From Canna indica (lineage: Eukaryota > Streptophyta > Magnoliopsida > Zingiberales > Cannaceae), in assembly GCA_034359265.1 (NCBI GenBank), contig CP136891.1, positions 64,394,001 through 64,458,000 of the forward strand: 64,000 bases of DNA, read 5' to 3'. This document shows, piece after piece, positions 10,466 through 57,080 of the stretch. Under the pieces are notes generated by a model. It made no database searches. It was not told the DNA's origin and worked only from the letters and a program-made list of their open reading frames with translations. The stretch's first letter is position 1, and each line of letters opens with the position of its first letter. The position numbers were made by a program, and so were the translations under genes.

Positions 10466-10596
10466 CCCATCGTCCACTAAGAGATGGCTATCCACAAGTT
10501 GGAAGTGACCTTGACACGACACAGACGGGACACCACCCGTCTTTACAAGACACGTCGGGCCAGCAATACAATAATTGCCCGACATACAGAATCAAA
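10466..10596 (-). promoter_or_regulatory. Type B intergenic region, truncated
   Basis: Remnant of the non-coding region following the type B ORF on the minus strand. It keeps the CAATAATTG palindrome (10,569-10,577) and part of the GGGCCC box but has lost the TATA box. The neighbouring fragment is joined inside the box near 10,466. Confidence 0.55.
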
Positions 10597-11838
10597 CTAC
10601 AGGGATCCCATGTGATTGTAGGTCCCCTCTAATAATGGGGTCGTCGGCTCATCCGTCGGCCTCCGGCTCCTGCAAACGATAACTGTGGCGATTTCGTCCT
10701 CGCGGTCCGCCACTGCACCACTCGATGATTCAGCAGGGTTCCATTCCTGTGCTCGGTCTTCAGGAACTTTGATCTTCATGGCGTAGCCCTGCTTCTTTTC
10801 GCAATTTCTCGCGAAATGCCCCTCTTCACCGCAGATAAAACATTTGCCTCGCCTGGCACGCGGCTTGGCTTCGCGGTATAATGATTTGACATTCAGAGGG
10901 TCGGTCTGAGTACCTTTATCCGAGCGATTCATGGCCGATTCAGGCGGGATAATTTCTGACTTTTGACGTAGATCCATGTCAGAAATTATTAAATCTTCAA
11001 TATCACCCCCACCATCCCTTTGACAAAAAATTCCCAGAATTTCATCTTTCGGCTCTTCCGAATCAACTCTACTCTGGAGAGAAGATTCTGGAATGGATAT
11101 CGCCACGATGTTACGTCGGACCTTCAGGCATGAAGTTCCCAGAACTTCATCATTCTGCTCTGAATCATCGTCCCGTCGTTGTAGGGGAGAAGATTTCGAT
11201 TCCGACCGTGCCAACTGTTGTGGATGTCGAACGGCCTTCGCGCCGTCGTCTTCTTCGGCACATCGTCAGACTCGCATATCTTCATGAGGACTTCGATCGG
11301 CAGAGTCGAACCTCCGATGGCGGGGGAAGAAGTTGAACTTCATCATTCTGCTCTGAATCATCGTCCCGTCCTTGGAGGGGAGAAGATTCTGATTCCGATC
11401 GTGCCAACTGTTGTGGATGCCGAACGGCCTTCGCGCCGTCGTCTTCTTCGGCATCGTCAGACTCGCAGATCTTCATGAGGACTTCGATCCGCAGAGTCGA
11501 ACCTCCGATGGCGGGGGAAGAAGTTAAAATCTTCACCATAACACTCCCACCATCTTCAGAAAGAATGGTTGTAACCATTCTTCTTCCGAGTCGGTCCGTA
11601 CGGCGAATAATCGTCGCACGATCAAAGTGAATCCGACTCGTGGAGACTCGTCAGCAGTCCACTCAAGAGCGTCCTCCTCTGTTCCTCCCTTCAATAAATT
11701 CTTCAAAGGCAAATCCTTTTTTGACTCAGGCTTCTCTTCTGGATTCTTCGCCAAGTCCAAGTAATCAAGGCTTCCAGTCGCAACTAAATCGTACTTCCGG
11801 TTCCTCAGTCGGTTGGTCAAAACTTTCAAATCTTTCAT
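10597..11838 (-). pseudogene. Type B acidic protein with capsid-like zinc knuckle
   Basis: Best copy of the type B coding region. It begins at a Met at 11,838 and shifts frame near 11,540. It carries a Trp-Leu-x-Pro-Phe-Phe motif that resembles motifs in the type A polyprotein tail and the type C protein. The 3' part (11,214-10,597) is open and has an intact CFICGEEGHFARNC knuckle preceded by Arg-rich sequence. A segment of about 0.19 kb is duplicated in tandem (near 11,145-11,540), and a small insertion in one unit breaks the frame. No movement protein, protease or RT is present. The function is unknown; nucleic-acid binding is inferred from the knuckle. Confidence 0.6.
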
Positions 11839-12271
11839 TCAGGTGCCTTCTCAGTTAAGAACCCTCAGATCTGATCCGGGTGCCTTCTTGATCAGCGATC
11901 GTAGCGTACTTTTCTTTATGGGTCGATCTTTCAAACCTTTCAACCTTAAATTTGGGTGCCTTCTTGGAATTACGGACGTAGGCGGTACTTTTTCTTCCTC
12001 CTCAGGAATACTTTTTCCTTATCACGTAAACCAAGTACACGTCTCCCAAATTATTCGGTCTTTCCAATTTTAAAATCGTCCCGAAGAATTTTTCAGCTAG
12101 AACGCATGCCAAGTTCACGTCTCCTGAACTTCCAATCTTGAATTCTTCCGAACCGAACAGAGCATACGGAAAACGAAGAGCTCCGGCGACAAGCCAAGAA
12201 TACTATAATACAAGGCGGAACAACAGCAGAAGAGGATAATACCTGAAAGCCAACACCAGGCTCTGATACCA
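11839..12271 (-). promoter_or_regulatory. Type B leader with tRNA-Met primer-binding site
   Basis: Leader upstream of the type B ORF. The PBS (TGGTATCAGAGC on the minus strand, 12,260-12,271) is complementary to the 3' end of plant initiator tRNA-Met and would prime minus-strand DNA. Downstream lie the shared leader motifs GGGAGACGTGTACTTGG (about 12,033-12,050) and AGAAGGCACCC (about 11,954-11,965). Extra copies of the pair lie near 11,839, 11,878 and 12,113. An RNA-structure or encapsidation role is only inferred. Confidence 0.65.
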
Positions 12272-12660
12272 GGAAAAGGATCGATGAAATAAATTGACGC
12301 AATGAGGAATATTTATAGAAGAGATGGGAAAGAGGGAAGAGCTACAAACTTTGGAAGAGTAGAACTACTCGGTTCTCGAGTCTGCTCTGCACCTTCCTTG
12401 GGCAGCTATATTTATAGCCAAAGATTGCTTACTCCCGAAGGAAGCTCATCCTTAGTGCGGGTGCTCATTGGGCCCCATCGTCCACTAAGTGATGGCTTTC
12501 CACAAGCGGGAAGTGACCCGACAGAGGTCATTCAAGCATCTTTGTATACTCCTAGGGCAATAATTGCCCAACAACTAGTACAAACTTGGGCAATAATTGC
12601 CCGACACATACAGTGCGCACCCATGTGATTGTGGGTTCCTCGCACAAAAGATAACTATGG
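12272..12660 (-). promoter_or_regulatory. Promoter P3 (type B/B2), minus copy
   Basis: Promoter region read leftwards. It has CAATAATTG palindromes (12,591-12,599 and 12,558-12,566), the shared GGGGCCCAATGAGCACCCGC box (near 12,465) and a TATAAATATAG TATA box (about 12,407-12,416). It continues into the type B leader and PBS, so promoter, PBS and type B ORF are contiguous and in the expected order here. This is the left arm of the large palindrome. Confidence 0.65.
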
Positions 12661-13360
12661 CAATTTGTTTCAGCGGTCGCCACTTCCGCTATTGAGCCGG
12701 TTCTCGATTTTGGCTTAATTTCGGGAATTAAACTCCCGAATCCTCCCACCGTCTTCAAAAAGATGAATTAGATTCATCGTCGGCGAGGTTCTACAGAATC
12801 GTAGAATCCTGTACATCATCCTGCTTCGGGCGAACCATCTCCGATCAAGACGAAGCAGATGACCCAGTATTCTACGATTCTGTAGAACCTCTCCGACGAT
12901 GAATCTAATTCATCTTTTTGAAGACGGTGGGCGGATTCGGGAGTTCAATCCCCGAAATTAAGCCAGAATCGAGAACCGGCTCAATAGCGGAAGTGGCGAC
13001 CGCTGAAACAAATTGCCATAGTTATTTTTTGTGCGAGGGACCCACAATCACATGGGCGCGCACTGTATGTGTCGGGCAATTATTGCCCTAGTTTGTACTA
13101 GTTGTCGGGCAATGATTGCCCTAGGAGTATACAAAGATGCTTGAATGACCTCTGTCAGGTCACTTCCCACTTGTGGAAAGCCATCACTTAGTGGACGATG
13201 GGGCCCAATGAGTACCCGCACTAAGGATGAGCTTCCTTCGGGAGTAAGCAATCTTTGGCTATAAATATAGCTGCCCAAGGAAGGTGCAGAGCAGACTCAC
13301 ATAACGAGTAGTTCTACTCTTCCAAATGTTGTAGCTCCCCCTCTCCCTCCTCCATCTCCT
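12316..13360. repeat. 1-kb palindrome of promoter P3 regions
   Basis: Two arms of nearly 0.5 kb (12,316-12,809 and 12,870-13,360) are near-perfect inverted copies around a spacer of about 60 bp. Each arm has a P3 promoter pointing away from the centre and, near the centre, remains of the B2 body. An assembly fold-back is possible. However, the arms differ at scattered bases and the outer flanks differ, which favours a real inversion. Confidence 0.75.
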
Positions 13361-13444
13361 CAATAAATTCTTCAAATCGGCTCTCCTTCAGTCGATTTCG
13401 AAAATTTATTTCGTCGATCCTTTTTCTGGTATCAGAGCTTGGAC
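13020..13444 (+). promoter_or_regulatory. Promoter P3 with primer-binding site, plus copy
   Basis: Rightward promoter with CAATTATTG (13,077-13,085) and a variant CAATGATTG (13,110-13,118), then the GTGGACGATG box (13,191), a TATAAATATAG TATA box (13,259-13,270) and the PBS TGGTATCAGAGCTTGG (13,427-13,442). It drives the B2 body that follows. Confidence 0.65.
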
Positions 13445-14428
13445 TTGATTTCAGGCACATCTTCTGGTAAATTCATATCCTGGATAAGTAATTTTATTCC
13501 GGTTGTAGTAGATAGCGTTCATTTTCCATCTACTTGTTTTGTTCTAAAGAGCTCGTAGATCGTAAGTTCAGGAGACGTGTACTTGGCGTGTACGCGATCT
13601 CGTGGAATTTACTCGGGCAGATTTTAAGACCGAAAGGCTTAAAAATTTGGGAGACGTGAACTTGGAATAGGCGATAAAGGGAACAAATACTCGTGTGGAG
13701 GAAAGAAGTTCGGCTATGATCGTAATTCCAAGAAGGCACCCAAATATAAGAGCCGGAAGGTTTGAAAAATCGACCCATGTAAAGTAAAGATCCGCAACAT
13801 CGCTGACCAAGAAGGCACCTGAACGAATGATCTGAGAGTGGTTCGGACTGATCAAGGAAATGGTATGATACGGCCCGTACTGCATACCGAGAATAACTCG
13901 ACTTAGCAAAGCACCAGAAGACTGAAATTAGAAAGGATTGTATCAATCCGAAAGGATTTATTGATGAGAGATGAAAGAGGAGGATGCACATGAGTGGACT
14001 ACTTCGAGTCTCAGAGTCGGAGGATGACGAGGAGGAGGTCATCATCCTGTACATCATCCTGCTTCAGGCGAACCATCTCCGATCAAGACGAAGCAGATGA
14101 CCCAGTATTCTACGATTCTGTAGAACCTCGCCGACGATGAATCTAATTCATCTTTTAGAAGACAGTGGGAGGATTCGGGAGTTCAATCCCCGAAATTAAG
14201 CCAGAATCGAGAACCGGCTCAATAGCGGAAGTGGCGACCGCTGAAACAAATTGCCATAGTTATCTTTTGTGCGAGGGACCCACAATCACATGGGCGCACA
14301 CTGTATGTGTCGGGCAATTATTGCCCTAGTTTGTACTAGTTGTCGGGCAATTATTGCCCTAGGAGTATACAAAGATGCCTGAATGACCTCTGTCAGGTCA
14401 CTTCCCACTTGTGGAAAGCCATCACTTA
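13191..14428 (+). other. Type B2 mini-unit, 1,238 bp from promoter box to promoter box
   Basis: One full period of a small pararetrovirus-like unit lying between two direct P3 copies. In order it has the P3 box, TATA, PBS (13,427), and a leader with two GGAGACGTG(T/A)ACTTGG motifs (about 13,572 and 13,648) and GAAGGCACCC (about 13,733). It continues with a short body (about 13,946-14,289) and the next P3 box (14,429). The body resembles the ends of the type B coding region joined together with the middle lost. No convincing ORF remains; the longest short frames are acidic and interrupted. It therefore looks like a non-coding deletion derivative with all cis signals retained. Confidence 0.55.
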
Positions 14429-14668
14429 GTGGACGATGGGGCCCAATGAGCACCCGCACTAAGGATGAGCTTCCTTCGGGAGTTAGCAATCTTTGGCTAT
14501 AAATATAGCTGCCCAAGGAAGGTGCAGAGCAGACTCGCATAACGAGAAGTTCTACTCTTCCAAATGTTGTAGCTCCCCCTCTCCCTCCTCCATCTCCTCA
14601 ATAAATTCTTCAAATCGGCTCTCCTTCAGTCGATTTCGAAAATTTATTTCGTCGATCCTTTTTCGGGC
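14290..14668 (+). promoter_or_regulatory. Promoter P3, second plus copy
   Basis: Direct repeat of the 13.0-kb P3 region. It has CAATTATTG at 14,315-14,323 and 14,348-14,356, the shared box at 14,429, and a TATA box at about 14,499-14,508. It breaks off just before the PBS, near 14,668, where a minus-strand P2 region begins. The two promoters therefore point at each other. Confidence 0.65.
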
Positions 14669-15002
14669 TACTAAGAACACTGAGTCGAAAGAGCAGGAGT
14701 GGAAATATATTTTCGAAATAGGATGGAGGAAAATATATTGAAACGGTGGAAGGATTACAATAACAGAAGAGTAGAACTACTTGGCTCTCAAGTCTGTTCT
14801 GCACCTTCATACTAAGACTCTATTTATAGACTAAAGGTTGCTTCCTTGCGAAGGAAGCTCATCCTTAGTGCGGGTGCTCATTGGGCCCCATCGTCCACTA
14901 AGTGATGGCTTTCCACAAGTGGGAAGTGACCTTGACATAGACGGGACAGACTTTAAGTACAATAATTGCCCGTCTTATAAGACACGTCGGGTAGTCGTAC
15001 AA
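14669..15002 (-). promoter_or_regulatory. Promoter P2, minus copy
   Basis: Leftward P2 promoter with CAATAATTG (14,960-14,968), the shared GGGCCC box (near 14,885), a GCTTCCTTGCGAAGGAAGC repeat, a TATAAATA TATA box (about 14,821-14,828) and leader sequence to 14,669. The PBS side is cut off. At 15,002 it is joined to type B coding sequence. Confidence 0.6.
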
Positions 15003-15662
15003 TATCCATTCCAGAATCTTCTCTCCAGAGTAGAGTTGATTCGGAAGAGCCGAAAGATGAAATTCTGGGAATTTCCCCTCCAAGAAGAATGGTTACAACC
15101 ATTCTTTCTGAAGATGGTGGGAGTGTTATGGTGAAGATTTTAACTTCTTCCCCCGCCATCGGAGGTTCGACTCTGCGGATCGAAGTCCTGATGAAGATCT
15201 GCGAGTCTGACGATGCCGAAGAAGACGACGGCGCGAAGGCCGTTCAGCATCCACAACAATCGGCACGGTCGGAACCAGAATCTTCTCCACTCCAAGGACG
15301 GGACGATGATTCAGAGCAGAATGATGAAGTTCAACTTCTTCCCCTGCCATCGGAGGTTCGACTCTGCGGATCGAAGTCCTCATGAAGATCTGCGAGTCTG
15401 ACGATGCCGAAGAAGACGACGGCGCGAAGGCCGTTCGGCATCCACAACAGTTGGCACGGTCGGAACCGGAATCTTCTCCCCTCCAAGGACGGGACGATGA
15501 TTCAAAGCAGAATGATGAAGTTCTGGGAACTTCATGCCTGAAGGTCCGACGTAACATCGTGGCGATATCCATTCCAGAATCTTCTCTCCAGAGTAGAGTT
15601 GATTCGGAAGAGCCGAAAGATGAAATTCTGGGAATTTCTTTTCAAAGGGATGGTGGGGGTGA
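15003..15662 (+). pseudogene. Type B coding fragment with internal duplication
   Basis: A plus-strand piece of the type B ORF. It opens with an out-of-order scrap (15,003-15,080) and then runs collinearly. It shows the same tandem duplication of about 0.19 kb as the 11.2-kb copy, so the duplicated form is a shared variant; the 1-907 copy lacks it. It ends before the zinc knuckle and is followed by about 50 bp of unplaced sequence. Confidence 0.6.
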
Positions 15663-15713
15663 TATCAACCCAGAAAGATGAAATTCTGTAATCTGAAGGT
15701 CGCGTGTTCGTCA

Positions 15714-17716
15714 TGCACCAACATCAAAGACCTTTTTGAGTATATTAATGACTACAAGGTCCTTGCAGCTAAGTCAGGGAGGATGTATGTCTCCCCTGAA
15801 CTTTCTGAGAAATTTTTCAGAAAAATGCCACCAATTATTGGCAGAGAAATTGAAGCAGCTTTTGCTGAAAAACACCTAGGAAACAACCTTGGGGTGTTTC
15901 CCAGAATTCATTTTACTTATCAATATCTTGAAGAACACTGCAAGAGGGCAGCTTTTTAGAGAAGCTTGAAGGACCTTACAATCTGCAACAAAATCCCAAT
16001 CCCTGGATATTATAAAAAGGAAAAGAAGTATGGTCTTAGAAAAGCTAAGACTTATAGAGGAAAGCCTCATGATACCCATGTTAGGGTATTTAAGAGAAAA
16101 CATGCTGATAAGGTGAGACGCTGCAAGTGCTTCATCTGCGGAGAAGAAGGACACTTTGCTCGCGACTGTCGCAGAAAACAAGGGAATATAGCCAGAGCAG
16201 CGATAGTGGAAAATCTGGACGTATCAGACAACTGGGATGTTGTCTCTGTCGAGCAGAATGAGCCGGATAGCGATGCTATATGCTCATTTTCGGAAGGAGA
16301 AGTGGGAATGGCGCACTCAATTACGACTGAACTCAATGATCTACCTTATGAGACAGCCATGGTTATAATATCTGAAGAAAAATCAGAATCTGATGAGCCA
16401 AAACCACTTGTATGGAGATCACAAGTTAAACTTCCCAAAGAAATGACGGAATGCATTCACAAATGGGAAGACAATCAGATTGAAATAACAAAAGACTGTG
16501 AGAAATGCACTTATTGCAAAGAACCCACGAACCCTAGAATGAGAGCTCACTGCAGAAATTGTCGGATAACAGTATGCCCAATGTGCTCCAGATTTTGCTT
16601 GGGCAGGAAAATCATCATCGAGAAGGCAAACTTTACGCCCTATGACGACAAAGATGCTCTGATAAGAGAACTATTGGAGTATACAAAATACCTTCTGGCG
16701 GAAAACCAGAGGTTAAAAGATGAAATAGATGAACTACGTCTAAGCCAAGATTTAGAGGATCTTGGAGAAAAATTTGATGTGTTAAGACTAGATCAAACAG
16801 AAGATCTAGAAAGGAAGATTGCAAAAGGAAAATCCCTAGTTACTGAAGAAGCCACCACCAGCAAAACACAAACAGGAATATTCTTCAGGGAAACTGCAAA
16901 TAAATTGTCAGAAGAAGAAGAGATTCTTCACTCAGTAGTTCCTGACCTAAAGAGGGGAAGAAGGTCTTGAATAGACTCTACAATATGCAAATCGTAATTG
17001 ATATCCCAGGAATACAAAAATTCAAGATTATGGCTATTCTAGACACGGGAGCTACGGTATGTTGTATAAATCAGGACGCAGTACCACCGGAGGCGCTAGA
17101 ACCAAGCGCTTACCCTATTCAGATCAATGGGGTAAATTCACAGCAAGTGGCCAGATTGAGACTCAAGAGTGGCCAAATGGCTATTGAAGAAAACAAGTTC
17201 AGAATTCTGTTCACTTATGTCTTCCCAATGGGTAAAGGAGATGGAATTCAAATGCTAATCGGCTGTAATTTCATAAGGGCTCTACAGGGAGGAGTCAGAA
17301 TTGAAGAGCAGACTGTCACATTTTATAAGAATGTTACAACGATTACTACAAGGATAGATACTGAGCTGACAGCAAGTGCTGCCATAGAGGAATTATGCCT
17401 CTCAGAGGACGAATACCTAGAAGTTAAGAGGGCAGTGACTTACGATTCTTATGAAGAGTCAAAATGGTTCAAGAAGAAATTTAGCCCCCTTTTGCAAAGG
17501 CTAAAAGATCAAGGATTCATTGGAGAGAATCCAATTCAGCATTGGGCCAAGAACCAAGTCACATGCAAACTTGAAATCATTAACCCGGATCTGACAATAC
17601 AAGACAAGCCCCTTAAACATGTGACACCAGCAATGAATGAACAGTTTGATAAACATGTTAAGGCATTACTGAAGATCGGTGTGATTAGGCCCAGCACAAG
17701 CCGCCATAGGACAATG
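15714..17716 (+). pseudogene. Type A polyprotein: capsid and protease fragment (copy 2)
   Basis: Plus-strand type A piece running from the capsid core through the CCHC knuckle (16,121-16,172), the second Cys-rich segment and the Glu/Leu-rich stretch, into the protease with an intact DTGA active site (17,040-17,054). It ends where RT should begin. Breaks are a TAG near 15,957 and a frame change near 16,967, where one frame stops and the protease frame takes over. At 17,716 it is joined to a P1 region, so RT and RNase H are absent. Confidence 0.8.
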
Positions 17717-18041
17717 GCAAATAAAGGAAGAATCTTACTGTGGATAGCCAGTAATCCAGTGGACGATGGGGCCCAATGAGCACCCGCACTGCATTATTGA
17801 GCTTCCTCGAGAAGCTTCCTCCTGCCTATATAAGGCATTTAGTTCGGAGTTGCAGGACACACTCGAGACCCGAGCAGTTCTACTCTCCATATTGTAACCA
17901 TTTCCTACTACTTTAATCAAGTTAAGCTTTCCATTTTCTCATTCCAACACAGCGTTCATTATAGCCCGTAGTTGTTTTGAGAAGACGATCCCGCGATTCC
18001 GCGTTTCTTTCCTGTCTCTTTCCTGGTATCAGAGCCTTGTG
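17717..18041 (+). promoter_or_regulatory. Promoter P1 with primer-binding site, plus copy
   Basis: Rightward P1 with the shared box from about 17,758, a TATATAAG TATA box (17,827-17,834), a long pyrimidine-rich leader start and the PBS TGGTATCAGAGCCTTG (18,024-18,039). What follows is not type A ORF2 but the leader and ORF of type C, so P1 was also used by type C. Confidence 0.7.
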
Positions 18042-18285
18042 TTCCTTATTTCTTCGTATGATCTTGGTATACCCTAATTCTTAATTTGCTAAGTCGAGAG
18101 GCTGTTCATTTCGTTCGTTCTTCTTCGTTGATCTTGAGAGCTTGAGATCGGAAGCTTGGGAGACGTGTACTCAGAGTAGGCGATAAAGTTGGGAAAAAGT
18201 ACTCGAGAGGAGGAAAGAAGTACCTTTACGTTCGTAATTCCGAGAAGGCACCCAAGTGAAAGATTGAAGAGCTCTAAAGGTTCGA
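18042..18285 (+). promoter_or_regulatory. Leader with shared element (type C, copy 1)
   Basis: It carries the conserved leader element. GGGAGACGTGTACTC (about 18,158) is followed by GCGATAAAG, AAAAAGTACTCGAGAGGAGG, CGTAATTCCGAGAAGGCACC (ending about 18,254). Short self-complementary pieces around GTAC suggest a hairpin. Confidence 0.55.
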
Positions 18286-18495
18286 TTGAGGAAACGACTG
18301 AGATTCAGCCTAGAGACTGCAAAAGGAAGAATTTCTTTGAAAGATCTAGAAGAAATTAAACCGGAGAGCGTCTATCTACTTCAAAATACATGGAGATGGA
18401 GAGGAAGGCAGAAGCAGCAGACGGACTCTCTACAAGTCTCGCATGGGATGATTTCTACGATGACCTCGACGAGGACATGCAGGTTATCTTGCAAC
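18286..18495 (+). pseudogene. Type C ORF, 5' fragment
   Basis: The first 0.2 kb of the type C coding region. It includes the acidic start that is read from the Met at 18,390 and is the same as in 27,231 onward. It is cut at 18,495, where a type B leader begins. It shows that the P1-PBS-leader-type C order occurs naturally in one piece. Confidence 0.55.
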
Positions 18496-18792
18496 TTGCA
18501 AGGATATTCCTGGTATCAGAGCCTGGTGTTGGCTTTCAGGTATTATCCTCTTCTGTTGTTGTTCCGAATTATATTATAGTATTCTTGGCTTGTCGCCGGA
18601 GCTCTTCGTTTTCCATATGCTATGTTCGGTTCGGAAGAATTCAAGATTGGAAGTTCAGGAGACGTGTACTCAGACTGAGCTCTGAGATCTGTTCGGGAGA
18701 CGTGAACTTGGCATGCGTTCTAGCTGAAAAATTCTTTGGGACGATTTTAAAACTGGAAAGCCCGAATAATTTGGGAGACGTGTACAATGCAA
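18496..18792 (+). promoter_or_regulatory. Type B leader with primer-binding site, plus copy
   Basis: Plus-strand version of the 11,839-12,271 leader. It has the PBS TGGTATCAGAGCCTGG at 18,511-18,526 and GGAGACGTG motifs near 18,658, 18,701 and 18,773. It is fused at its end to a 0.1-kb scrap of type A capsid sequence (18,793-18,900). Confidence 0.6.
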
Positions 18793-18913
18793 GAGAGCAG
18801 CTTTACAGAGAAGCTTGAAGGACCTTACAATCTGCAACAAAATCCCAATCCCTGGATATTATAAAAAGGAAAAGAAGTATGGTCTTAGAAAAGCTAAGAC
18901 AAGAAAAAGCAAA

Positions 18914-19904: not shown

Positions 19905-21714
19905 TTGGTATAAATACAGCCTTAACGACAACACCCACAAAGATCAATACAGCCTACCAGGTATAAATACAATTTTAAAGAGAATAGGAAACAGCGGAAT
20001 ATTCTCTAAATTTGACCTCAAGAGCGGCTTCCACCAAGTTGCAATGGCCCCAGAATCAATACCCTGGACTGCTTTTATAGTACCAGGAGGATTGTATGAA
20101 TGGCTGGTAATGCCATTCGGATTGAAAAATGCTCCAGCCATATTTCAGAGAAAAATGGACCAGTGCTTCCAAGGGACAGAAAACTTCATAGCTGTGTACA
20201 TAGATGATATACTGGTATTTTCAGACAATGAGGAGGAACATGCTAAGCATCTAAAAAAGATGTTAGCTATCTGCGAAAAGTGGGGATTAGTTCTTTCTCC
20301 TTCTAAGATGAGAATAGCTACCAAAGAAATAGAGTTTCTGGGAGCAATTATTGGTAGCAATAAGATAAGACTGCAACCTCACATAATTAAGAAAATAATC
20401 AATTTCGATGAGGAGCAATTGAAGAGTAAGGCTGATCTCAGATCATGGCTTGGGATACTCAACTATGCCAGATCCTACATCCCTAATTTAGGGACTCTCT
20501 TAGGACCTTTGTATTCTAAAACAAGCCCTCACAGAGACAAGCGAATTAAACAATCAGATCAGCAACTGATTGCGAGAATTAAAGACTTAGTCCAGAAACT
20601 TCCTGATCTAGAATTACCACCACCTGATGCATACATAATTCTAGAAACAGACGGATGCATGGAAGGTTGGGCAGGGATATGCAAGCGGAAGAATAAAAAG
20701 CATGACCCCAGAAGCACAGAGAAAGTATGTGCTTACGCCAGTGGCAAGTTTCCAACTGTCAAGTCTATAATTGACGCAGAAATACATGCGTGTATGGAAA
20801 CTTTGAGAGCCCTCAAAATCCACTACCTTGACCACGGAGAAATAACTCTCAGAACAGACTGTCAAGCCATAATAAGTTTTTACAACAAGTCTGCGCAAAA
20901 TAAACCTTCAAGAGTAAGATGGATCAATTTTGTTGCCTTTGTAATAGGAACGGGAGTTCATATTCATTTTGAACACATCGATGGCAAATTAAACACACTA
21001 GCCGATGCATTATCAAGATTGACTGCCAATCTCGTTCAAACAAGCAACCCAGTATGTATTGAAAGGCATCTGGCAGATTTAGAGGGAGCATTGACTGAGG
21101 CAAAGGAAGCTCCCCCAAAAGTTATTCAACAACTGTGTTTGGCTATTGGTAAGATTAATAGCCTGCTGACGCATTCTCACCAAGCACTTATGGCAACATA
21201 TCCCTGGGATGATGAAGAACTTATTGCTGAAGCACTTATGGCAGCATCTTCGTGGGAAGAAGAGTATGATCTGAATGATCCAGATAACCCTGGAATTATA
21301 GGAGAAATCTGGGCACTTGAAAGAGAAGAAATTCAAACGGAACATGAAGTTAACCCACCTCCTTTTTGGGATTATCTACCTATATGGGATGAACATATTA
21401 GCTATATTCAAGAAGAAAACTCAGTTCCTACAAATTCAAAGGAAGAAGATCAAGAAATTCTGAGTCAGATCAACCCAGAAGAGAAGAAAAACATTGTGAC
21501 CACGGCTACACCAGAGCCAGAACCTCAAAACAATCACAATCATGAGCAGCCTGAATGCTCATATGCAAGGAACAAGACAAATAAAGATTGGTTAAAACCA
21601 TTCTTGCCCTTCCTCGATGAAGAAGAAAATTCTACTGAAGGACCGAAAGAACCAGAAAGATGGTTAGATGCGGATTCCCTAAGAAAGGGAAAATATCCGG
21701 CCCTCGACAACTGA
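19905..21714 (+). pseudogene. Type A RT, RNase H and acidic tail (copy 3)
   Basis: A long open frame (20,044-21,714, 556 codons) with the RT palm including YIDD (20,197-20,208), the connection and RNase H (about 20,620-21,020). An acidic tail follows with repeated Trp-Asp-Asp and Trp-Glu-Glu units, then EQPECSYA, a Trp-Leu-Lys-Pro-Phe motif and the end GKYPALDN. The RT N-terminus is lost. The tail goes beyond RNase H and is fully present only here and at 31,188. I find no family name for it. Its resemblance to type B and C proteins suggests a structural or accessory role. Confidence 0.85.
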
Positions 21715-21790
21715 AGAAGACATGAAAGGGGAGTGGAAACCCTCTAAACTTCCACTGTTATCTTATTAATAGTTTGTTCAATTTTGCAGA

Positions 21791-22201
21791 ATGATTCTAG
21801 ATAATCTCAAAGGCTTAATGACTATCCACCATGATACGGCGCCAAAAACAAGGAAGGATATTACTACTGCTCAATACTGGGCAGTACTCAGTGGTGCGAA
21901 CGGCCTTGAAGACCTGAAACGCTTAACGGGTGACCTTCTGTTCAAATATCCAAGTACGATAGATGAAAGTCACCAATGGGCACGAGAAGCTTATGAAATC
22001 CACAAGGCCCAAACGATGAGAGCGATCGAAGAAGTTGGCAAGCTACTTGCAATGGCTTATCTCCAGAAAGCTAGATTAGAGCAAGCAGCAATAAAGGATA
22101 ACTGGGCATCAGATGCTCTTGGACCAGTAGAGCATCACATCAAAAACCTGGTCCAGTGTCACAAGTCACTTTGCAATAGTAGACAAAGCAACATATACTA
22201 G
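21791..22201 (+). CDS. Type A ORF4, intact frame
   Basis: Open frame of 136 aa starting 76 bp after the polyprotein stop, the best copy of this gene. It is predicted helical, with Trp-Ala and Leu-rich stretches and a Cys-containing C-terminus ending SRQSNIY. There is no signal peptide, membrane segment or metal motif. It sits between RNase H and P1 in every copy. Its start is favoured by conservation of the frame from this Met in three copies. Function unknown. It may have been translated from a subgenomic or spliced RNA, which cannot be judged here. Confidence 0.6.
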   Translation: MILDNLKGLMTIHHDTAPKTRKDITTAQYWAVLSGANGLEDLKRLTGDLLFKYPSTIDESHQWAREAYEIHKAQTMRAIEEVGKLLAMAYLQKARLEQAAIKDNWASDALGPVEHHIKNLVQCHKSLCNSRQSNIY

Positions 22202-22660
22202 GCAAAGAGATAAGAACCAACAAGCACCAGGAGACCGTGAAGGACAATAATTGAGCCTGTGAGTTGTAAAGCTAGTAACGTCTTAGTCTATGAGCTGTAA
22301 ACATAGGACAATAATTGTGTGAAGTCCTATCAAGTTAGCTGTAAAGGAAGAATCTTACTGTGGATAGCCAGTAATCCAGTGGACGATGGGGCCCAATGAG
22401 CACCCGCACTGCATTATTGAGCTTCCTCGAGAAGCTTCCTCCTACCTATATAAGGCATTTAGTTCGAAGTTGCAGGACACACTCGAGACCCGAGCAGTTC
22501 TACTCTCCATATTGTAACCATTTCCAACTACTTTAATCAAGTTAAGCTTTCCATTTTCTCATTCCAACTCAGCGTTCATTGTAGCCCGTAGTTGTTTTGA
22601 GAAGACGATCCCGCGATTCCGCGTTTCTTTCCTGTCTCTTTCCTGGTATCAGAGCCAAGT
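22202..22660 (+). promoter_or_regulatory. Type A 3' region, promoter P1 and PBS
   Basis: Complete type A intergenic region. It has CAATAATTG at 22,245-22,253 and 22,309-22,317, the GGGGCCCAATGAG box (from about 22,387), a TATATAAG TATA box (22,447-22,454), a pyrimidine-rich leader start and the PBS TGGTATCAGAGCC (22,644-22,656). About 30 bp of unplaced sequence then leads into a minus-strand capsid/protease fragment. Confidence 0.7.
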
Positions 22661-22686
22661 ATCAATACAATTTTATACAGCAGAAT

Positions 22687-24285
22687 GTAGAGTCTATTCA
22701 AGACCCTTCTTCCCCTCTTTAGGTCAGGAACTACTGAGTGAAGAATCTCTTCTTCTTCTGACAATTTATTCACAGTTTCCCTGAAGAATAACCCTGTTTG
22801 TGTTTTGCTGGTGGTGGCTTCTTCAGTAACTAGGGATTTTCCTTTTGCAATCTTCCTTTCTAGATCTTCTGTCTGATCTAGTCTTAACCCATCAAATTTT
22901 TCTCCAAGATCCTCTAAATCTTGGCTTAGACGTAGTTCATCTATTTCATCTTTTAACCTCTGGTTTTCCGCCAGAAGGTATTTGGTATACTCCAATAGTT
23001 CTCTTATCAGAGCATCTTTGTCATCATAGGGCGTAAAGTTTGCCTTCTTGATGATGATTTTCCTGCCCAAGCAAAATCTGGAGCACATTGGGCATACTGT
23101 TATCCGACAATTTCTGCAGTGAGCTCTCATTTTAGGGTTCGTGGGTTCTTTGCAATAAGTGCATTTCTCACAGCCTTTTGTTATTTCAATCTGATTGTCT
23201 TCCCATTTGTGAATGCATTCCGTCATTTCTTTGGGAAGTTTAACTTGTGATCTCCATACAAGTGGTTTTGGCTCATCAGATTCTGATTTTTCTTCAGATA
23301 TTATAACCATGGCTGTCTCATAAGGTAGATCATTGAGTTCAGTCGTAATTGAGTGCGCCATTCCCACTTCTCCTTCCGAAAATGAGCATATAGCATCGCT
23401 ATTCGGCTCATTCTGCTCGACAGAGACAACATCCCAGTTGTCTGATACGTCCAGATTTTCCACTATCGCTGCTCTGGCTATATTCCCTTGTTTTCTGCGA
23501 CAGTCGCGAGCAAAGTGTCCTTCTTCTCCGCAGATGAAGCACTTGCAGCGTCTCACCTTATCAGCATATTTTCTCTTAAATACCCTAACATGGGTATCAT
23601 GAGGCTTTCCTCTATAAGTCTTAGCTTTTCTAAGACCATACTTCTTTTCCTTTTTATAATATCCAGGGATTGGGATTTTGTTGCAGATTGTAAGGTCCTT
23701 CAAGCTTCTCCGAAAAGCTGCCCTCTTGCATTGTTCTTCAATATATTGATAAGTAAAATGAATTCTGGGAAACACCCCTAGGTTGTTTCCTGGGTGTTTT
23801 TCAGCAAAAGCTGCTTCGATTTCTCTGCCAATAATTGGTGGCATTTTTCTGAAAAATTTCTCAGAAAATTCAGGGGAGACATACATCCTCCCTGACTTGG
23901 CTGCAAGGACCTTGTAGTCATTAATATACTCAAAAAGGTCTTTGATGTTGGTGCATGATAGCCTTTCAAGGTCATTGTATGCTCTGGCCTGTTCCTCCGT
24001 TGATCCTGTGACCGGATCCTCTAACAAAAACATTCTTCTTATTTGAGATATCACGTTCTGGGGGTCGTCGGCTATGTTCGTAAGTTCCTCGTATTCATTC
24101 GGGAACGTCATCCTCCATTGTATCCAAGTTTTCTTTTCAGTTTCTCCAAGAAGGTTCTCAATGTAACAGATTTTGGACTTGTTCTCTGTCCAGTTTCTCT
24201 CGTTTACCATGTTTAGGGTGATTGACTCCCATCTTGCTATAACGTCACTGTATAGTCTGACGTTTTCTGGGAGAACTAGTAACAC
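22687..24285 (-). pseudogene. Type A capsid to start of protease (copy 4)
   Basis: The longest uninterrupted capsid frame in the window: 22,576-24,285 is open, but its last part (22,576-22,686) is foreign P1 sequence. It has the capsid core (about 24,280-23,740), the CCHC knuckle (about 23,497-23,549), the acidic stretch, the second Cys-rich segment (about 23,180-23,060) and the Glu/Leu coiled-coil-like part. It stops at the start of the protease, before the DTG. The frame is continuous with the movement-protein part upstream except for one TAA at about 24,291. Confidence 0.85.
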
Positions 24286-25802
24286 ACTTTAGTTTACTTG
24301 TGCTGATGGCAAATTATACCTTTCATCGTGTTGTTTAGAGTATCCTCCCTTTACGTTCTTCAGTCTTGACTGGATGGTTGGGACATTTATTGCTGACGAT
24401 TGTCTAGTCCCTGGAGGGTACATTGCAGGACCCATTATTGGTTCTATGGGTCTTGTGAGCGAGGACTCAGCTGTGGAGAATGCTGCCTCTGTTGTGTTTA
24501 TGCTTTTGGTCAGCTGCTTGATCATTGGATACTCCATTTCAGCAGCATAAACTGTTTCAAAATGGGATGGGTGGTTTTCCTTTTCCTCCCCTCCCCTGTT
24601 AAAAAGAATTGGGTCTGGCCCAATTTCTTCATCATCTTCAGATGTATCCCATTTTGGGGGATTCATCGTCTCATCATCGTAACTGTTGGCTGTTGACGGC
24701 TCTTCTACCTGTAGCTGCATCAGGTGCCTGAGAACTTGAAGATCTTCGTCTTCATCTTCGTCGGATTCCTCTTCTTCCATAGAGTCATCCCACTGGCATG
24801 TCATCATTAGGGCCAGTTCCTGTTCTAATGTTTCATCCTCGGAATTCTCAGCTTCAGCTCTTACCATATCTGATGTTGTGGTGTAGTCTGAAAATTGGAC
24901 GGCAAGTGTTCCATCTGTCAGTGACCTTATCCTAGCAGTTTGTGGATTATGTTGTGCCGTTAATACTGCAGGTCTGATTTTCCACTGCCTCCCTTGTAGG
25001 CTGGCAGTAGTTCTGACTTGACCAGGAATTGCTCGAATTCCTCTGCTGGCCAGATGGTCGGCAACGTGTTGCACGTTATACCGAAAGTTGGTATGGCTGC
25101 TATTTGACAGTCTTCCAATGAGTGATCGGGATAATAAGAGGTTGCTTTCACCTCCTTGTCATCCCTGGTAGCCATGTGTCTGAAGCACTAATTGAATGTG
25201 CTCCCTAAAGTCATGGATGTTGATTGTCATATCAAGTGCTGTGTATGCTAACTGAGTGCCAGTAGTTAGGTCTATCTCCATAGAGCTGATCACAGCTCTA
25301 TCATCCATCCATCTAGTATCTCTTAATAATACTAGGGCGTTCACGCCTGCACTCCTTCTATGCAGGGTGTGCAATCAGATCATAACCATGACAATATGCA
25401 AGTGTTGTAGGCCTTCTTGCACTAGCAGGTTATAACTCTGGTCAGTTATAAAAGGAAGCTCGACTTGGGCTCCTTCTGCAACAAGGATTCTCTCATCCGA
25501 GTAATGTTAATATACCCTGTGTTGTCTCTCGGACCAACCTGCTTGGTAAAGTGTTTCCGCAGATACCTGTTGGGCTCTTTGATACTGAGATACTGTCAGT
25601 TCAGCCTCAGGATTTAGTTGTGATTCTAGACTTCTTCTAAAGTTGTTTCTGCCTCCGTTGGGCAGTCTCCTTTGTGCCTCGTGGTGAAGTCGACTTCTCA
25701 GTCGGTAACCACGGATTTGGTCATCAATTGTGGGCTGTAAGTTGGACTCCCTTCCAGAAATTGAAGATCTTGGTAGTACTTCGGTCCTTGTTGTAGAAGT
25801 TA
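24286..25802 (-). pseudogene. Type A movement protein and acidic linker (copy 4)
   Basis: Follows ORF2 with an ATGA-type overlap; here the start codon itself is degraded (ATAACT). The 30K core lies at about 25,430-24,990. Near 25,500 and 25,375 the frame holds stops (TAA and TGA), and from 25,074 it is open to 24,289. The Glu/Asp-rich linker with WDD motifs connects to the capsid. This copy proves that ORF2, movement protein and capsid are contiguous in type A. Confidence 0.8.
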
Positions 25803-26198
25803 TTTTGCTTTTTCTTTTTCGATATTGAAAATTTCCTTAGGGTTTCTGAATACAAAGAGTTTCCCTTGTGCCTTTGGGATCATTGGGGCTGATGGTTCTC
25901 CTAAATTGAGTTTCTGTAGATCCTTTTGTAGGCTTTCAATTGAACTAGCAAGTTCCTCTTGGTCTGTTGGCTTTGCTGCCTTCAAGGCTTTGACTTCTTG
26001 TTTTAAGATTTCGAGATCTTCCTTGATCTTGACTGTTAGTTGAATCAGAGTATTCACCTGTTTAAACAATGTTTGTGATAGCTTTTGTGTGACCTCAACT
26101 GGTTTAACAAATCCTTTGGCCGGTTGGCCAAGACATTCAGTGACCTTTAAAGCTTCTATGTATGTTGAACTGGCTGCTGTAAGGCGCTAGTCGCTCAT
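25800..26198 (-). pseudogene. Type A ORF2, full length
   Basis: 133 codons from the ATG at 26,198 to the stop at 25,800-25,802. The fourth codon is TAG, so this copy is dead at its start; the rest is open. The N-terminal third has the pattern of badnavirus ORF2-like proteins (a short Tyr-Ile-Glu-Ala-Leu stretch and a Gly-Phe-Val element). The middle is a Leu/Ile/Val heptad region and the end is Lys/Glu-rich. It is the only copy with both ends. A virion-associated role is inferred from relatives. Confidence 0.6.
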
Positions 26199-26461
26199 GA
26201 AATGACTCTTAATAGCTTAAGTCTGTATTAAACTGGTTGCTGTTTGAATGAGTTAAATCAAGATTGTAACCTAGGTGTCTTCTTAAGGTTTCGAAGTTAC
26301 GGGAAATCTTTCCTCTTCCTTGAGTACTTTTTCCCTTCCTTTATCTACTACCTTAAGTACACGTCTCCTAAGTTCAATCTAAATTTAAAACAAATAGAAC
26401 AGCATGAGCTTAACACAAGCTTGAAATAGTAAGAGTACCTGAAAATCTAGCTCTGATACCA
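26199..26461 (-). promoter_or_regulatory. Type A leader and primer-binding site
   Basis: About 0.25 kb between the PBS (TGGTATCAGAGC on the minus strand, 26,450-26,461) and the ORF2 ATG. It carries the shared element GGAGACGTGTACTTAAGG (about 26,350-26,369), a GATAAAGGAAGGGAAAAAGTACTC stretch split around GTAC, and AAGACACC (about 26,276). This is the type A version of the element seen in types B, B2 and C. Confidence 0.65.
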
Positions 26462-26885
26462 GGAAAGAGACGCGGAATCGCGGGATCGTCTTCTCAAAAC
26501 AACTACGGGCTACAATGAACGCTGAGTTGGAATGAGAAAATGGAAAGCTTAACTTGAGTAGGAAATGGTTACAATATGGAGAGTAGAACTCCTCGGGTCT
26601 CGAGTGTGTCCTGCAACTCCGAACTAAATGCCTTATATAGGCAGGAGGAAGCTTCTCGAGGAAGCTCAATAATGCAGTGCGGGTGCTCATTGGGCCCCAT
26701 CGTCCACTAGATTACTGGTTATCCACAGTAAGATTCTTCCTTTACAGCTAACTTGATAGGACTTCACACAATTATTGTCCTATCTTTACAACTCATATAC
26801 TATGACGTTACTAGCTTTACAACTCACATGCTCAATTATTGTCCTTCACGGTCTCCTGGTGCTTGTTGGTTCTTATCTCTTTGCC
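26462..26885 (-). promoter_or_regulatory. Promoter P1 and 3' region, minus copy
   Basis: Minus-strand P1 with the TATATAAG TATA box at 26,633-26,640, the shared GGGCCC box (near 26,690-26,705) and CAATTATTG palindromes upstream (about 26,770 and 26,833). It is contiguous with the leader, ORF2 and polyprotein to the left and with the end of ORF4 to the right, which fixes the circular type A map. Confidence 0.7.
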
Positions 26886-27038
26886 TAGTATATGTTGCTT
26901 TGTCTACTATTGCAAAGTGACTTGTGACACTGGACCAGGTTTTTGATGTGATGCTCTACTGGTCCAAGAGCATCTGATGCCCAGTTATCCTTTGTTGTTG
27001 CTTGCTCTAATCTAGCTTTCTGGAGATAAGCCATTGCA
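26886..27038 (-). pseudogene. Type A ORF4, 3' fragment
   Basis: The last 0.15 kb of ORF4, cut at 27,038, where type C leader sequence in the opposite orientation begins. The C-terminal frame matches that of 21,791-22,201. Confidence 0.6.
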
Positions 27039-27126
27039 AGTACTCGAGAGGAGGAAAGAAGTACCTTTACGTTCGTAATTTCGAGAAGGCACCCAAGTGA
27101 AAGATTGAAGAGCTCTAAAGGTTCGA
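27039..27126 (+). promoter_or_regulatory. Type C leader, 3' part
   Basis: It retains GTACTCGAGAGGAGGAAAG and GAGAAGGCACCC of the shared leader element. The PBS and promoter that would precede it are not present here. The equivalent complete leader is at 18,042-18,285. Confidence 0.5.
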
Positions 27127-27230
27127 TTGAGGAAACGACTGAGATTCAGCCTAGAGACTGCAAAAGGAAGAATTTCTTTGAAAGATCTAGAAGAAATTAA
27201 ATCGGAGCGCGTCTATCTACTTCGAAATAC

Positions 27231-28049
27231 ATGGAGATGGAGAGGAAGGCAGAAGCAGCAGACGGACTCTCTACAAGTCTCGCATGGGATGATTTCTACG
27301 ATGACCTCGACGAGGACATGCAGGTCATCTTGCAACTTGGAAGGATCGACTCGGAGCAGCCAGACTGCTCCTATTCCGATGAAAGAAGATCTAGGAGGGA
27401 TTCAGCCCTCATGGCGGTATGCAGCTGGGATGACGACTACGAGCTGAACGCAGAGGACGACCCAGGAGTCGTCGAAAATATCATGACGCTCGGGATGACT
27501 CTCCGAGCCGAGCGCGAGGACTTACCTCCTCGGTGGGACGACTACGATGATGATGACAAGATCATCCTGGACTGGGGTCAAAATTTTAAAAATTCAAGAC
27601 TAGATTCTGACCATCCCACGACCGTAGAAGACAACCGGGGTCAAAATTTTAAAAATTCAAGACCAGATTCTGACCATCCCATGACCGTAGAAGACAACCG
27701 GGGCCAAAATTTTGATAATTTATGTTCTAAGGATGACGACCGCCCCGAGGAAGACGAAAACATGGTGACTCTGTTACCCGCCATGATCATCCACGAGCAG
27801 CCGGAGTGCTCGTACGCGAAGGACGAGGCTATCCTTCGCACTCACCTGTGTCTGCCCCTGATATGGGAGGACACCTATTCAAGTAAAGAATGGGTCGAAC
27901 CATTCTTTTTCAAAGAAGGTGAGGGGAGTTCTGGGAAAAATTTTGAAATTCCTATCCCAAAATCGGAAAATTGGCTGGATCAAGAAGCCCTAGGGAAGGG
28001 AAAATACCCAGCCAGGCAGATTCCAACTGTATATGACCCAGGAGGATGA
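27231..28049 (+). CDS. Type C protein, resembling the type A polyprotein tail
   Basis: Uninterrupted frame of 272 codons, very rich in Asp and Glu, with several Trp-Asp-Asp motifs. A 63-bp (21-codon) unit beginning RGQNF or WGQNF occurs about 2.5 times (27,576-27,725). Its end repeats the order seen at the end of the type A polyprotein: EQPECSYA, a Trp-Val-Glu-Pro-Phe-Phe motif and a Trp-Leu-Asp...GKYPA end. It lacks RNase H, RT and a zinc knuckle. An overlapping frame at 27,127-27,447 is open but looks incidental. I infer it is a free-standing version of the tail. The function is unknown, and its intact state suggests a late insertion. Confidence 0.6.
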   Translation: MEMERKAEAADGLSTSLAWDDFYDDLDEDMQVILQLGRIDSEQPDCSYSDERRSRRDSALMAVCSWDDDYELNAEDDPGVVENIMTLGMTLRAEREDLPPRWDDYDDDDKIILDWGQNFKNSRLDSDHPTTVEDNRGQNFKNSRPDSDHPMTVEDNRGQNFDNLCSKDDDRPEEDENMVTLLPAMIIHEQPECSYAKDEAILRTHLCLPLIWEDTYSSKEWVEPFFFKEGEGSSGKNFEIPIPKSENWLDQEALGKGKYPARQIPTVYDPGG

Positions 28050-28714
28050 ATCTGCCCACGAAAGGAGCGGATGAACGTCCGGGAGATTTCCCATCCCAGA
28101 CTAATTTGAAAAATTAAAACGGCTTCAAGAGCGGAAGTGGTAAAACCGCCGAAACAAATTACCACAGTTATCCTGTAAATTAATTTTGCTTTTGCAGGTT
28201 TGCTACAATTTGGTGCAAGGAAGCACGCTGACGAAGCCTCCATTATTAGAAGGTCCCCACCATCACATGGGCACCTTTAGCTTTGCACTATTTATTATTC
28301 TATGTGTCGGGTAATAATTGTACGACTACCCGACGTGTCTTATAAGACGGGCAATTATTGTACTTAAAGTCTGTCCCGTCTATGTCAAGGTCACTTCCCA
28401 CTTGTGGAAAGCCATCACTTAGTGGACGATGGGGCCCAATGAGCACCCGCACTAAGGATGAGCTTCCTTCGCAAGGAAGCAACCTTTAATCTATAAATAG
28501 AGTCTTAGTATGAAGGTGCAGAACAGACTTGAGAGCCAAGTAGTTCTACTCTTCTGTCAGTGTAATCCTTCCACCGTTTCAATATATTTTCCTCCATCCT
28601 ATTTTGAAAATATATTTCCACTCCTGCTCTTTCGACTCAGTGCTCTTAGTAGCCCGTAGTCGAATTGAGCGACGCGTGTATTTTCCCATTCCCCCTTATG
28701 GTATCAGAGCTAGA
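28050..28714 (+). promoter_or_regulatory. Type C 3' region, promoter P2 and PBS
   Basis: After the type C stop come a conserved segment with GCGGAAGTGG and ACAAATTACCACAG (about 28,127-28,170), the CATCACATGGGC motif (about 28,262), CAATTATTG (28,352-28,360) and the GTGGACGATGGGGCCCAATG box (from about 28,421). A GCTTCCTTCGCAAGGAAGC repeat, a TATAAATA TATA box (28,492-28,499) and the PBS TGGTATCAGAGC (28,699-28,710) follow. Type C sequence and P2 are thus one piece. Confidence 0.65.
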
Positions 28715-28749: not shown

Positions 28750-28806
28750 TCTTTGTATTCAGAAACCCTAAGGAAATTTTCAATATCGAAAAAGAAAAAG
28801 CAAAAT
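28750..28806 (+). pseudogene. Type A ORF2, last codons
   Basis: The last 19 codons of ORF2, joined to the P2 leader at about 28,750. The ATGA overlap with the next ORF (28,804-28,807) is intact, the clearest example of this coupling in the window. Confidence 0.55.
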
Positions 28807-30064: not shown

Positions 30065-30065
30065 A

Positions 30066-30270
30066 ATCAAGATTGTAACCTAGGTGCCTTCTTAAGGTTT
30101 CGAAGTTACGGGAAATCTTTCCTCTTCCTTGAGTACTTTTTCCCTTCCTTTATCTACTACCTTAAGTACACGTCTCCTAAGTTCAATCTAAATTTAAAAC
30201 AAATAGAATAGCATGAGCTTAACACAAGCTTGAAATAGTAAGAGTACCTGAAAACCTGGCTCTGATACCA
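30066..30270 (-). promoter_or_regulatory. Type A leader and primer-binding site, second copy
   Basis: Minus-strand leader with the PBS (30,259-30,270) and the shared element (GGAGACGTGTACTTAAGG at about 30,160-30,180, AAGGCACC near 30,085). It is truncated before ORF2 at 30,065. Confidence 0.6.
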
Positions 30271-56878: not shown

Positions 56879-57080
56879 TCACCTCACAAGCTACGTTAGC
56901 ACTCCACTACCGCTTCAACTATGCTTTATAACTAATTACTGTTGCTTCCTCTGCTATTATTGTTGTTGTTTGTTGCATTCTGTTATGATGCCTCTAATAT
57001 AAATACCCCTCAAATGTACTGATTCAACCAAGCTTGATAAAATGAATAGTTGATTACTTTCCTTCTCATGAGCGTTATTA
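56836..57080 (+). repeat. 3' LTR of the nested copia element
   Basis: 245 bp, the same length as the 5' LTR, preceded by the purine tract TTGAGGGGGGA (56,825-56,835). The right edge adjoins the interrupted RT of the outer element at 57,081. Confidence 0.9.

What the first reader, a model, noticed from the sequence alone, without database searches (positions are those of the whole stretch)
10466..28714. Helper-and-satellite or segmented pararetrovirus system
Four unit types have different coding content but the same cis signals: a tRNA-Met PBS, a common leader element, a promoter core box and CAATWATTG palindromes. Type A has all replication genes; B and C have one small protein each; B2 appears to have none. 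Promoter, PBS, leader and ORF are contiguous for B (12,660-10,597) and C (17,717-18,495 and 27,039-28,714). Bipartite endogenous caulimovirids (florendoviruses) are described. A family of one autonomous genome plus several small ones using its RT would be a further case, like non-autonomous LTR elements.
Basis: partly seen in the sequence, partly recalled or inferred. Interest (0 to 1): 0.88.

Follow-up and report, generated by a model that had tools for sequence, protein, structure and literature searches.

The report
Mini-circle satellites of a plant pararetrovirus
In the canna genome, remains of a plant virus that copies itself through RNA are mixed with several much smaller units that carry the virus's start signals but no copying enzyme; these units recur head to tail across the genome and look like virus satellites, which is unusual for this kind of virus.

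Summary
Window 1-35,500 is a rearranged cluster of endogenous caulimovirid DNA. Type A carries MP, CP (CCHC), AP, RT and RNase H, and no integrase was found. Small units B (1.85 kb), C (1.8 kb) and B2 (1.24-1.28 kb, no sense ORF of 60 codons) recur elsewhere as head-to-tail units running from one tRNA-Met primer site to the next. A fourth coding type, D (1.64 kb), lies outside the window. The promoter core occurs 556 times, against 0 for a control. C and B frames recur intact and mostly under purifying selection. 5 of 9 C-type tails break off, all 5 at the primer site, as reverse-transcribed DNA would. B, C and (weakly) D proteins match C-terminal tails of A's CP, RT and MP. B and C have exchanged promoters; A's promoters form a group apart. 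Best reading: reverse-transcribed, helper-dependent satellites that began as deletion derivatives of an A-like virus. Helper dependence is inferred. Non-autonomous pararetroviruses and bipartite florendoviruses (5.5-6.9 kb) are in print; satellite-sized or non-coding units did not appear in my paper searches. Host: Canna indica (exact protein match).

The parts
1..1163 (+). B unit, second of a head-to-tail pair; its primer site lies 612 bp upstream of the window, one 1,853-bp unit after the previous one
87..728 (+). B ORF as it stands (213 codons; differs at its 3' end from other copies)
   Evidence: Pfam zf-CCHC was shown on other B copies
988..1163 (+). B promoter region, cut off shortly after the TATA region
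1204..1506 (-). A promoter block ending next to the primer site, joined to B
10597..11214 (-). B ORF copy with CCHC knuckle (205 codons)
11850..12271 (-). B primer site (12271-12260) and leader with the shared element
12260..12811 (-). B2-type 3' region and promoter fused to the B primer site
12806..14667 (+). B2: one and a half head-to-tail units, spacing 1,238 bp, primer site 13427-13438, no sense ORF of 60 codons
14664..15003 (-). C promoter and 3' region piece
15004..15665 (+). B ORF pieces with a 191-bp duplication
17722..18035 (+). A promoter to primer site, fused at the primer site to the C leader
18036..18505 (+). C leader and start of the C ORF (18197-18505 is 98% identical to 27038-27346)
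18511..18785 (+). primer site and B-type leader, block starting at the primer site
20044..21714 (+). A RT/RNase H ORF piece with C-terminal tail
   Evidence: Pfam
22342..22655 (+). A promoter to primer site
22576..24285 (-). A coat protein ORF piece with CCHC
   Evidence: Caulimovir_coat_dom E 1.3e-44
25804..26744 (-). A promoter, primer site and 0.65-kb leader contiguous up to the MP start
27038..28710 (+). C block: rest of the leader, ORF, 3' region, promoter, primer site 28699-28710
27231..28049 (+). C ORF (272 aa), homologous to the A RT polyprotein C-terminus
28805..30211 (+). A movement protein ORF piece
   Evidence: Pfam MP E 7.9e-5, just below the curated cut-off
30259..30560 (-). A promoter and primer site
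31188..33167 (-). A RT/RNase H ORF
   Evidence: RVT_1 E 7.8e-39
33213..34229 (-). A aspartic protease ORF
   Evidence: RVP and Peptidase_A3
35207..35449 (-). C promoter block that ends where the primer site should begin

Best explanation
The locus is a patchwork of integrated DNA from an infecting pool made of an apparently complete caulimovirid (A, about 7 kb by my sum of the blocks, not assembled) and several satellite-sized non-autonomous relatives (B, C, B2; D elsewhere). Each small unit was a circular DNA of 1.2-1.9 kb. It was transcribed from the shared promoter, its RNA was primed by tRNA-Met at the shared primer site, and it was copied by reverse transcriptase supplied in trans, most likely by A. 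The shared leader element, rich in purines, is the best candidate for packaging and/or plus-strand priming. The small units most likely arose from A-like genomes by internal deletion: each keeps a leader, a promoter and the C-terminal tail gene of one A ORF (B: CP, C: RT, D: MP). B2 kept only the signals. Shown: recurrence, unit ends, conserved frames, tail homology (weak for D), promoter exchange between B and C, primer-site ends. Inferred: circular form, trans-replication by A, deletion origin, role of the leader element.
For: Units recur head to tail with the same ends: B 1,853, 1,588, 1,680, 1,816 and 1,922 bp, C 1,788 and 1,810 bp, B2 1,272 and 1,279 bp, primer site to primer site. 556 promoter cores against 0 for the control, with runs of constant spacing among the 100 listed. 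C: 10 different open frames of 234-272 aa at 8 places (one, L051, with a different end), dN/dS 0.23-0.59 in 45 of 45 pairs. B: dN/dS 0.44-0.84 in 39 of 42 rows; frames of 213-217 codons with the same end at 7 places. 5 of 9 C-type tails stop short of the primer site, all 5 within about 5 nt of where it begins. Neighbouring units of one array may be only 88.8% alike (C5), or carry promoters 85% alike of which one is 96% like a chromosome-8 copy; simple chromosomal duplication would not give this. In the promoter tree with only firmly labelled rows counted (56 of 93), starred branches force at least 2 label changes for B and 3 for C. Tail homology. A pieces lie in 14 of 19 B and 7 of 12 C stretches of about 3.4 kb.
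Against: A and the small units share only about 150 bp of promoter at 78-86%, whereas rice partners share nearly whole intergenic regions. A promoters form one group of their own (100/97) and B2 promoters another (93/72), so exchange with A is not shown; the true helper could be an unseen relative. No free circle or expression data were available. 3 of 42 B rows have dN/dS above 1, and overlapping loci are counted more than once there; choosing open C frames favours low values. Some arrays (C5, 3,639-bp period) look amplified in the chromosome. Antisense frames in B2 were not tested for coding.
Confidence: 0.72

Rival explanations
1. Segmented virus: B, C and D are essential genome parts of a multipartite caulimovirid, and A alone could not complete its cycle.
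For: B and C reading frames are conserved over several lineages, and B and C units lie near A pieces. Bipartite florendoviruses exist in print.
Against: A has MP, CP with CCHC, AP, RT and RNase H. B, C and D proteins match tails that A still carries, and B2 has no sense ORF of 60 codons.
Confidence: 0.14
2. Non-autonomous LTR retrotransposons that share a promoter with the virus by recombination.
For: Promoter, R and primer site resemble an LTR plus PBS, and the units multiplied without an RT of their own.
Against: A has caulimovirid MP and CP and no integrase match in the ORFs scanned. Each unit in an array has one promoter per repeat, and a single C unit (L043) has one promoter, opens near the primer site and lies between A pieces. 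Target-site duplications were not searched for.
Confidence: 0.06
3. Ordinary debris: tandem duplications in the chromosome of deleted A fragments, with no independent replication.
For: Some arrays have exact periods (C3, 5 copies at 1,577 bp; C5, 3,639 bp), and L077 carries a broken B frame.
Against: The same unit types with the same ends recur on several chromosomes at differing divergence. There is purifying selection across lineages, mixed lineages within arrays and ends at the primer site.
Confidence: 0.07

Closest known systems
Non-autonomous pararetroviruses eRTBVL2, ePVCVL and ePVCVL2 of rice and other grasses (Chen, Zheng and Kishima 2017, PMC5491270; abstract, Results parts 1-2 of 3 and Discussion part 1 of 2 read)
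   Same: Components without RT (eRTBVL2, ePVCVL) share noncoding regulatory sequence with a partner, exchange it by recombination, and are known as integrated copies.
   Different: Those still encode MP, CP and PR, or MP, PR and RT, and have very similar intergenic regions with one partner. Here units are 1.2-1.9 kb with one tail gene or none, several kinds exist, similarity to A is limited to short signals, and exchange is shown only between B and C.
Bipartite florendoviruses, e.g. OsatBV, VvinBV (Geering et al. 2014, PMC4241990; passages read)
   Same: Two components with common signals, co-integrated in plant genomes; one carries a C-terminal extension homologous to the other's protein.
   Different: Components are 5.5-6.9 kb, complementary, and over 90% identical in the intergenic region; here A has all the domains and the small units are far shorter and more diverged.
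Begomovirus beta- and deltasatellites (recalled; deltasatellite papers seen only as listings)
   Same: Small circles, one gene or none, dependent on a helper.
   Different: Single-stranded DNA copied by rolling circle; here the marks are of reverse transcription.

Membership tests
Caulimoviridae (type A) | RT, RNase H, AP, MP and caulimovirid coat domain | tested here: met
   the best MP match, E 7.9e-5, lies just under the curated cut-off (22.8 vs 23 bits)
Caulimoviridae (type A) | no integrase | tested here: met
   no rve match in the ORFs scanned in 1-35.5 kb; ORFs under 120 aa and three listed ORFs (87-728, 1669-2058, 7830-8228) were not scanned
Caulimoviridae (type A) | tRNA-Met primer site | tested here: met
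   exact TGGTATCAGAGC sites; that this pairs with plant initiator tRNA-Met is recalled
Genus within Caulimoviridae | RT phylogeny with reference genera | not tested
   only best hits: Rhynchospora polyprotein 77% over 73% of the query, sweet potato pakakuy virus 62%, Dioscorea bacilliform virus ORF4 61%
Bipartite florendovirus | complementary components of 5.5-6.9 kb | tested here: not met
   units of 1.2-1.9 kb; A has all domains
Bipartite florendovirus | intergenic region over 90% identical between components | tested here: not met
   A vs small units 78-86% over about 150 bp
Non-autonomous pararetrovirus (Chen et al.) | no RT of its own, several integrated copies with a consistent structure | tested here: met
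Non-autonomous pararetrovirus (Chen et al.) | regulatory sequences homogenised with the RT-bearing partner by recombination | tested here: inconclusive
   exchange between B and C is forced by starred branches, but A promoters form one group apart and are not near-identical to B, B2 or C; 6 of 14 C promoters lie on A's side of the deepest drawn split
Satellite | depends on a helper for replication | not testable with these tools
   no infection or expression data
Non-autonomous LTR retrotransposon | unit flanked by two LTRs | tested here: not met
   one promoter per repeat; single C unit in L043 has one
Non-autonomous LTR retrotransposon | target-site duplications | not tested
   not searched

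The most novel reading that the evidence does not exclude
A reverse-transcribing plant virus kept a lasting swarm of satellites of 1.2-1.9 kb: three coding kinds, each carrying the tail gene of a different helper ORF (coat, polymerase, movement), plus non-coding minimal circles. This would be the first satellite system of a pararetrovirus on the scale of geminivirus satellites, and the smallest unit would define a minimal cis set for pararetroviral replication.
Probability: 0.53. Interest if true: 0.85.

Novelty: new variant of a known kind. Interest (0 to 1): 0.73.

Why it matters
Satellites are known for RNA viruses and single-stranded DNA viruses (recalled); for pararetroviruses the published cases that I saw are larger defective or bipartite genomes. 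If these units are satellites, B2 (about 1.27 kb) shows which signals suffice for transcription, tRNA priming, reverse transcription and spread. The matching of each small gene with one helper tail suggests a path from deletion mutant to lasting satellite. It also warns annotators: one C copy is in the databases as a canna gene.

Tried and rejected
Rejected: 'contiguous C' at 17,717-18,495 (an A promoter); B and C as proteins unrelated to A; confinement to this locus; B2 as a chance tandem of this locus only. Withdrawn on checking: a first count of promoter label changes (at least 5 for B, 3 for A) was inflated by treating 32 unlabelled rows as a group; with them set aside it is 2 for B, 3 for C, 1 for A and 1 for B2.

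A sample of otherwise unclassified promoter cores was cut to 8 places, of which none is a clear B or C unit: 1 is plainly A (L094), 1 B-related (L090), the other 6 have diverged promoters that match A features best, with a C-like leader in 2. So the 556 cores must not be read as 556 small units. Genome searches scored only the best candidates: 40 of 200 for B, 38 of 38 for C, 40 of 42 for B2, 40 of 67 for D, 40 of 784 for A MP. D rows include short matches that may be A pieces. E-values are for comparison with about ten sequences only.
Full report
WHERE. The window is G000:C2:64,394,001-64,458,000 of a 753-Mb genome in 9 contigs. A C-type protein of L045 is letter for letter the database protein 'hypothetical protein Cni_G09750 [Canna indica]', so the host is Canna indica.

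WHAT IS IN THE WINDOW. Positions 1-35.5 kb are a patchwork of blocks, most pairs 94-99% alike, in both orientations. Type A blocks carry caulimovirid coat protein with a CCHC knuckle, aspartic protease, RT, RNase H and a movement protein; no integrase was found in the ORFs scanned. Small blocks B, B2 and C have the same primer site and promoter core and a leader element with purine-rich stretches; the element exceeds 100 shuffles in the pairs of types tested, though less for A vs B (40 vs 29) and A vs B2 (38 vs 30) than for A vs C (73 vs 27). Outside this cluster the window holds copia-type pieces.

CORRECTIONS TO THE FINDING. The promoter at 17,722-18,035 is 98% identical to the four other A promoters and is fused to C's leader at the primer site. 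The promoter at 12,260-12,530 is 94% B2-like (269 bp) and 91% B-like (169 bp). The C block with ORF, promoter and primer site in a row is 27,038-28,710.

GENOME-WIDE TEST. The promoter core with up to 1 mismatch occurs 556 times (282 + 274), the reversed pattern 0 times; the 100 places listed include runs with constant spacing: 5 copies at 1,577 bp, and others at 1,637, 1,786, 1,763 and 1,656 bp. Match rows: B 41, C 56, B2 51, D 42, A MP 45, with only the best candidates scored for all but C. In 65 loci (L009-L073, many overlapping), 18 rows show two primer sites in the same orientation with the distance between them. Complete B units: 1,853 bp (L009 and L011, the same unit), 1,588 (L020-L022, copies of one repeat), 1,680, 1,816, 1,922. 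Complete C: 1,788 (L046 and L060, the same) and 1,810 (L041 and L042, the same). Complete B2: 1,272 and 1,279. Rows that do not fit a plain unit: 857 (L025), 2,198 with an A piece (L032), and 288 with nothing recognised between (L041 and L042). The window's own B2 spacing is 1,238 bp.

ARE THE GENES REAL? C: 10 different open frames of 234-272 aa at 8 places; all 45 pairs have dN/dS 0.23-0.59, dS up to 0.60. I chose frames over 230 aa, which favours intact copies; one of the ten (L051) has a different end, and broken C frames exist. B: 42 comparisons with the window copy 10,597-11,214 give 0.44-0.84 in 39 and 1.08-1.54 in 3, the three being among the least diverged; overlapping loci are counted more than once, and the window copy reads past the stop that the others share. 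Frames of 213-217 codons with the same end recur at 7 places. B2: no sense-strand ATG ORF of 60 codons in 5 of 5 stretches, two of them incomplete units; antisense frames of 84 codons lie in 3 of 5 and of 175 codons in the window copy alone, and were not tested further. L071 has open stretches of 66 and 80 codons without ATG.

WHERE THE SMALL GENES COME FROM. The B knuckle region matches A's CP over 46 aa (48%, E 1e-11) and 113 aa (32%, E 2e-12). C aligns along 240 columns with the stretch after RNase H of A's RT polyprotein (25%, E 1.6e-15). A further type, D (L074, array at C1:9.70 Mb, units of about 1.64 kb), has a 155-codon frame like the tail of A's MP (38% over 79 aa, E 4e-5) and recurs elsewhere. 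These E-values are for about ten sequences; the D match is weak and acidic in composition. Each match is to the tail of a different A ORF, which points to deletion derivatives of an A-like genome; the direction is inferred. Arrays L076 and L077 look like further derivatives, one with A pieces, one B with a broken frame.

MARKS OF REVERSE TRANSCRIPTION AND OF A SHARED POOL. Of 9 different C-type tails before the primer site, 4 run on into it and 5 break off, all 5 within about 5 nt of its first base (places read). This search looks only at 60 nt after the tail; breaks elsewhere in the units exist, and the window's own C tails did not match the motif. The minus strand of a pararetrovirus starts at that site (recalled), so this is what linearised reverse-transcribed DNA would leave. 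In the window too, blocks near 1,204, 18,035, 18,511 and 35,207 end at that site. Arrays join different lineages in register: successive B units on C5 are 88.8% alike, and the C array at C3:34.97 Mb holds two promoter classes 85% alike, one of them 96% like a copy on C8; other arrays have units 98-99.7% alike. In the promoter tree of 93 rows a 100/97 branch splits A with 6 of 14 C promoters from B, B2 and the other C. Counting only the 56 firmly labelled rows, A is one group (100/97), B2 one group (93/72), and starred branches force at least 2 changes for B and 3 for C. Labels rest on the upstream sequence. So exchange is shown between B and C, not with A.

MECHANISM. Shown: common signals, unit ends, conserved frames, tail homology, exchange between B and C. 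Inferred: transcription of a circle, tRNA-Met priming, copying by RT in trans, packaging through the leader element. A is the best helper candidate, since A pieces lie beside 14 of 19 B and 7 of 12 C places after overlapping loci were left out. Against it stands the distance of A's promoter from those of the small units (78-86%). An unseen A relative with the B/C-type promoter is possible; among the 7 A promoters fetched from other lineages I found none.

AGAINST PRINT. Rice non-autonomous pararetroviruses (PMC5491270; abstract, two of three parts of Results, first part of Discussion read) and bipartite florendoviruses (PMC4241990, passages) make the principle known; a 2023 review (PMC10377300, passages) reports bipartite florendoviruses and says that multipartite genomes are not otherwise found among Ortervirales. 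Satellite-sized or non-coding pararetroviral units did not appear in the listings of searches of open-licence papers; other journals were not covered. Hence a new variant of a known kind.

VERDICT. The finding is real, and wider than the window showed. What remains open is helper identity, satellite versus segment, and whether free circles exist today.

Noticed in passing
L045:1172-1918 (C3:34.97 Mb): A C-unit ORF is in the databases as a host gene, hypothetical protein Cni_G09750 of Canna indica (exact match).
   Followed up: yes
L074 (C1:9.698-9.709 Mb): Fifth type D: units of about 1.64 kb in two runs, with a 155-codon ORF like the tail of A's movement protein, and short AP and RT remnants.
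   Followed up: partly
L076 (C2:61.45 Mb): Array with 1,763-bp spacing whose unit holds A MP and RT pieces and a diverged promoter, like a mini-A deletion derivative.
   Followed up: no
L077 (C3:42.980-42.986 Mb): Five promoter cores at exactly 1,577-bp spacing; B-derived unit with a broken frame.
   Followed up: no
L019-L022 (C5:61.97-61.99 Mb): A 3,638-3,639-bp higher-order repeat with two different B lineages, over four copies: probably a B heterodimer later amplified in the chromosome.
   Followed up: partly
27574-27720: 63-bp unit repeated 2.3 times inside the C ORF; C frames elsewhere differ in length.
   Followed up: no
13530-14057: 175-codon antisense ORF in the window's B2 unit, not found at that length in 4 other B2 stretches.
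   Followed up: partly
53606-59293: Ty1/copia-type integrase and RT pieces in the AT-rich part of the window.
   Followed up: no
L092, L093 (C1:38.68 Mb): Two promoters 5.2 kb apart on the A side of the promoter tree, followed by a C-like leader: perhaps another component.
   Followed up: no
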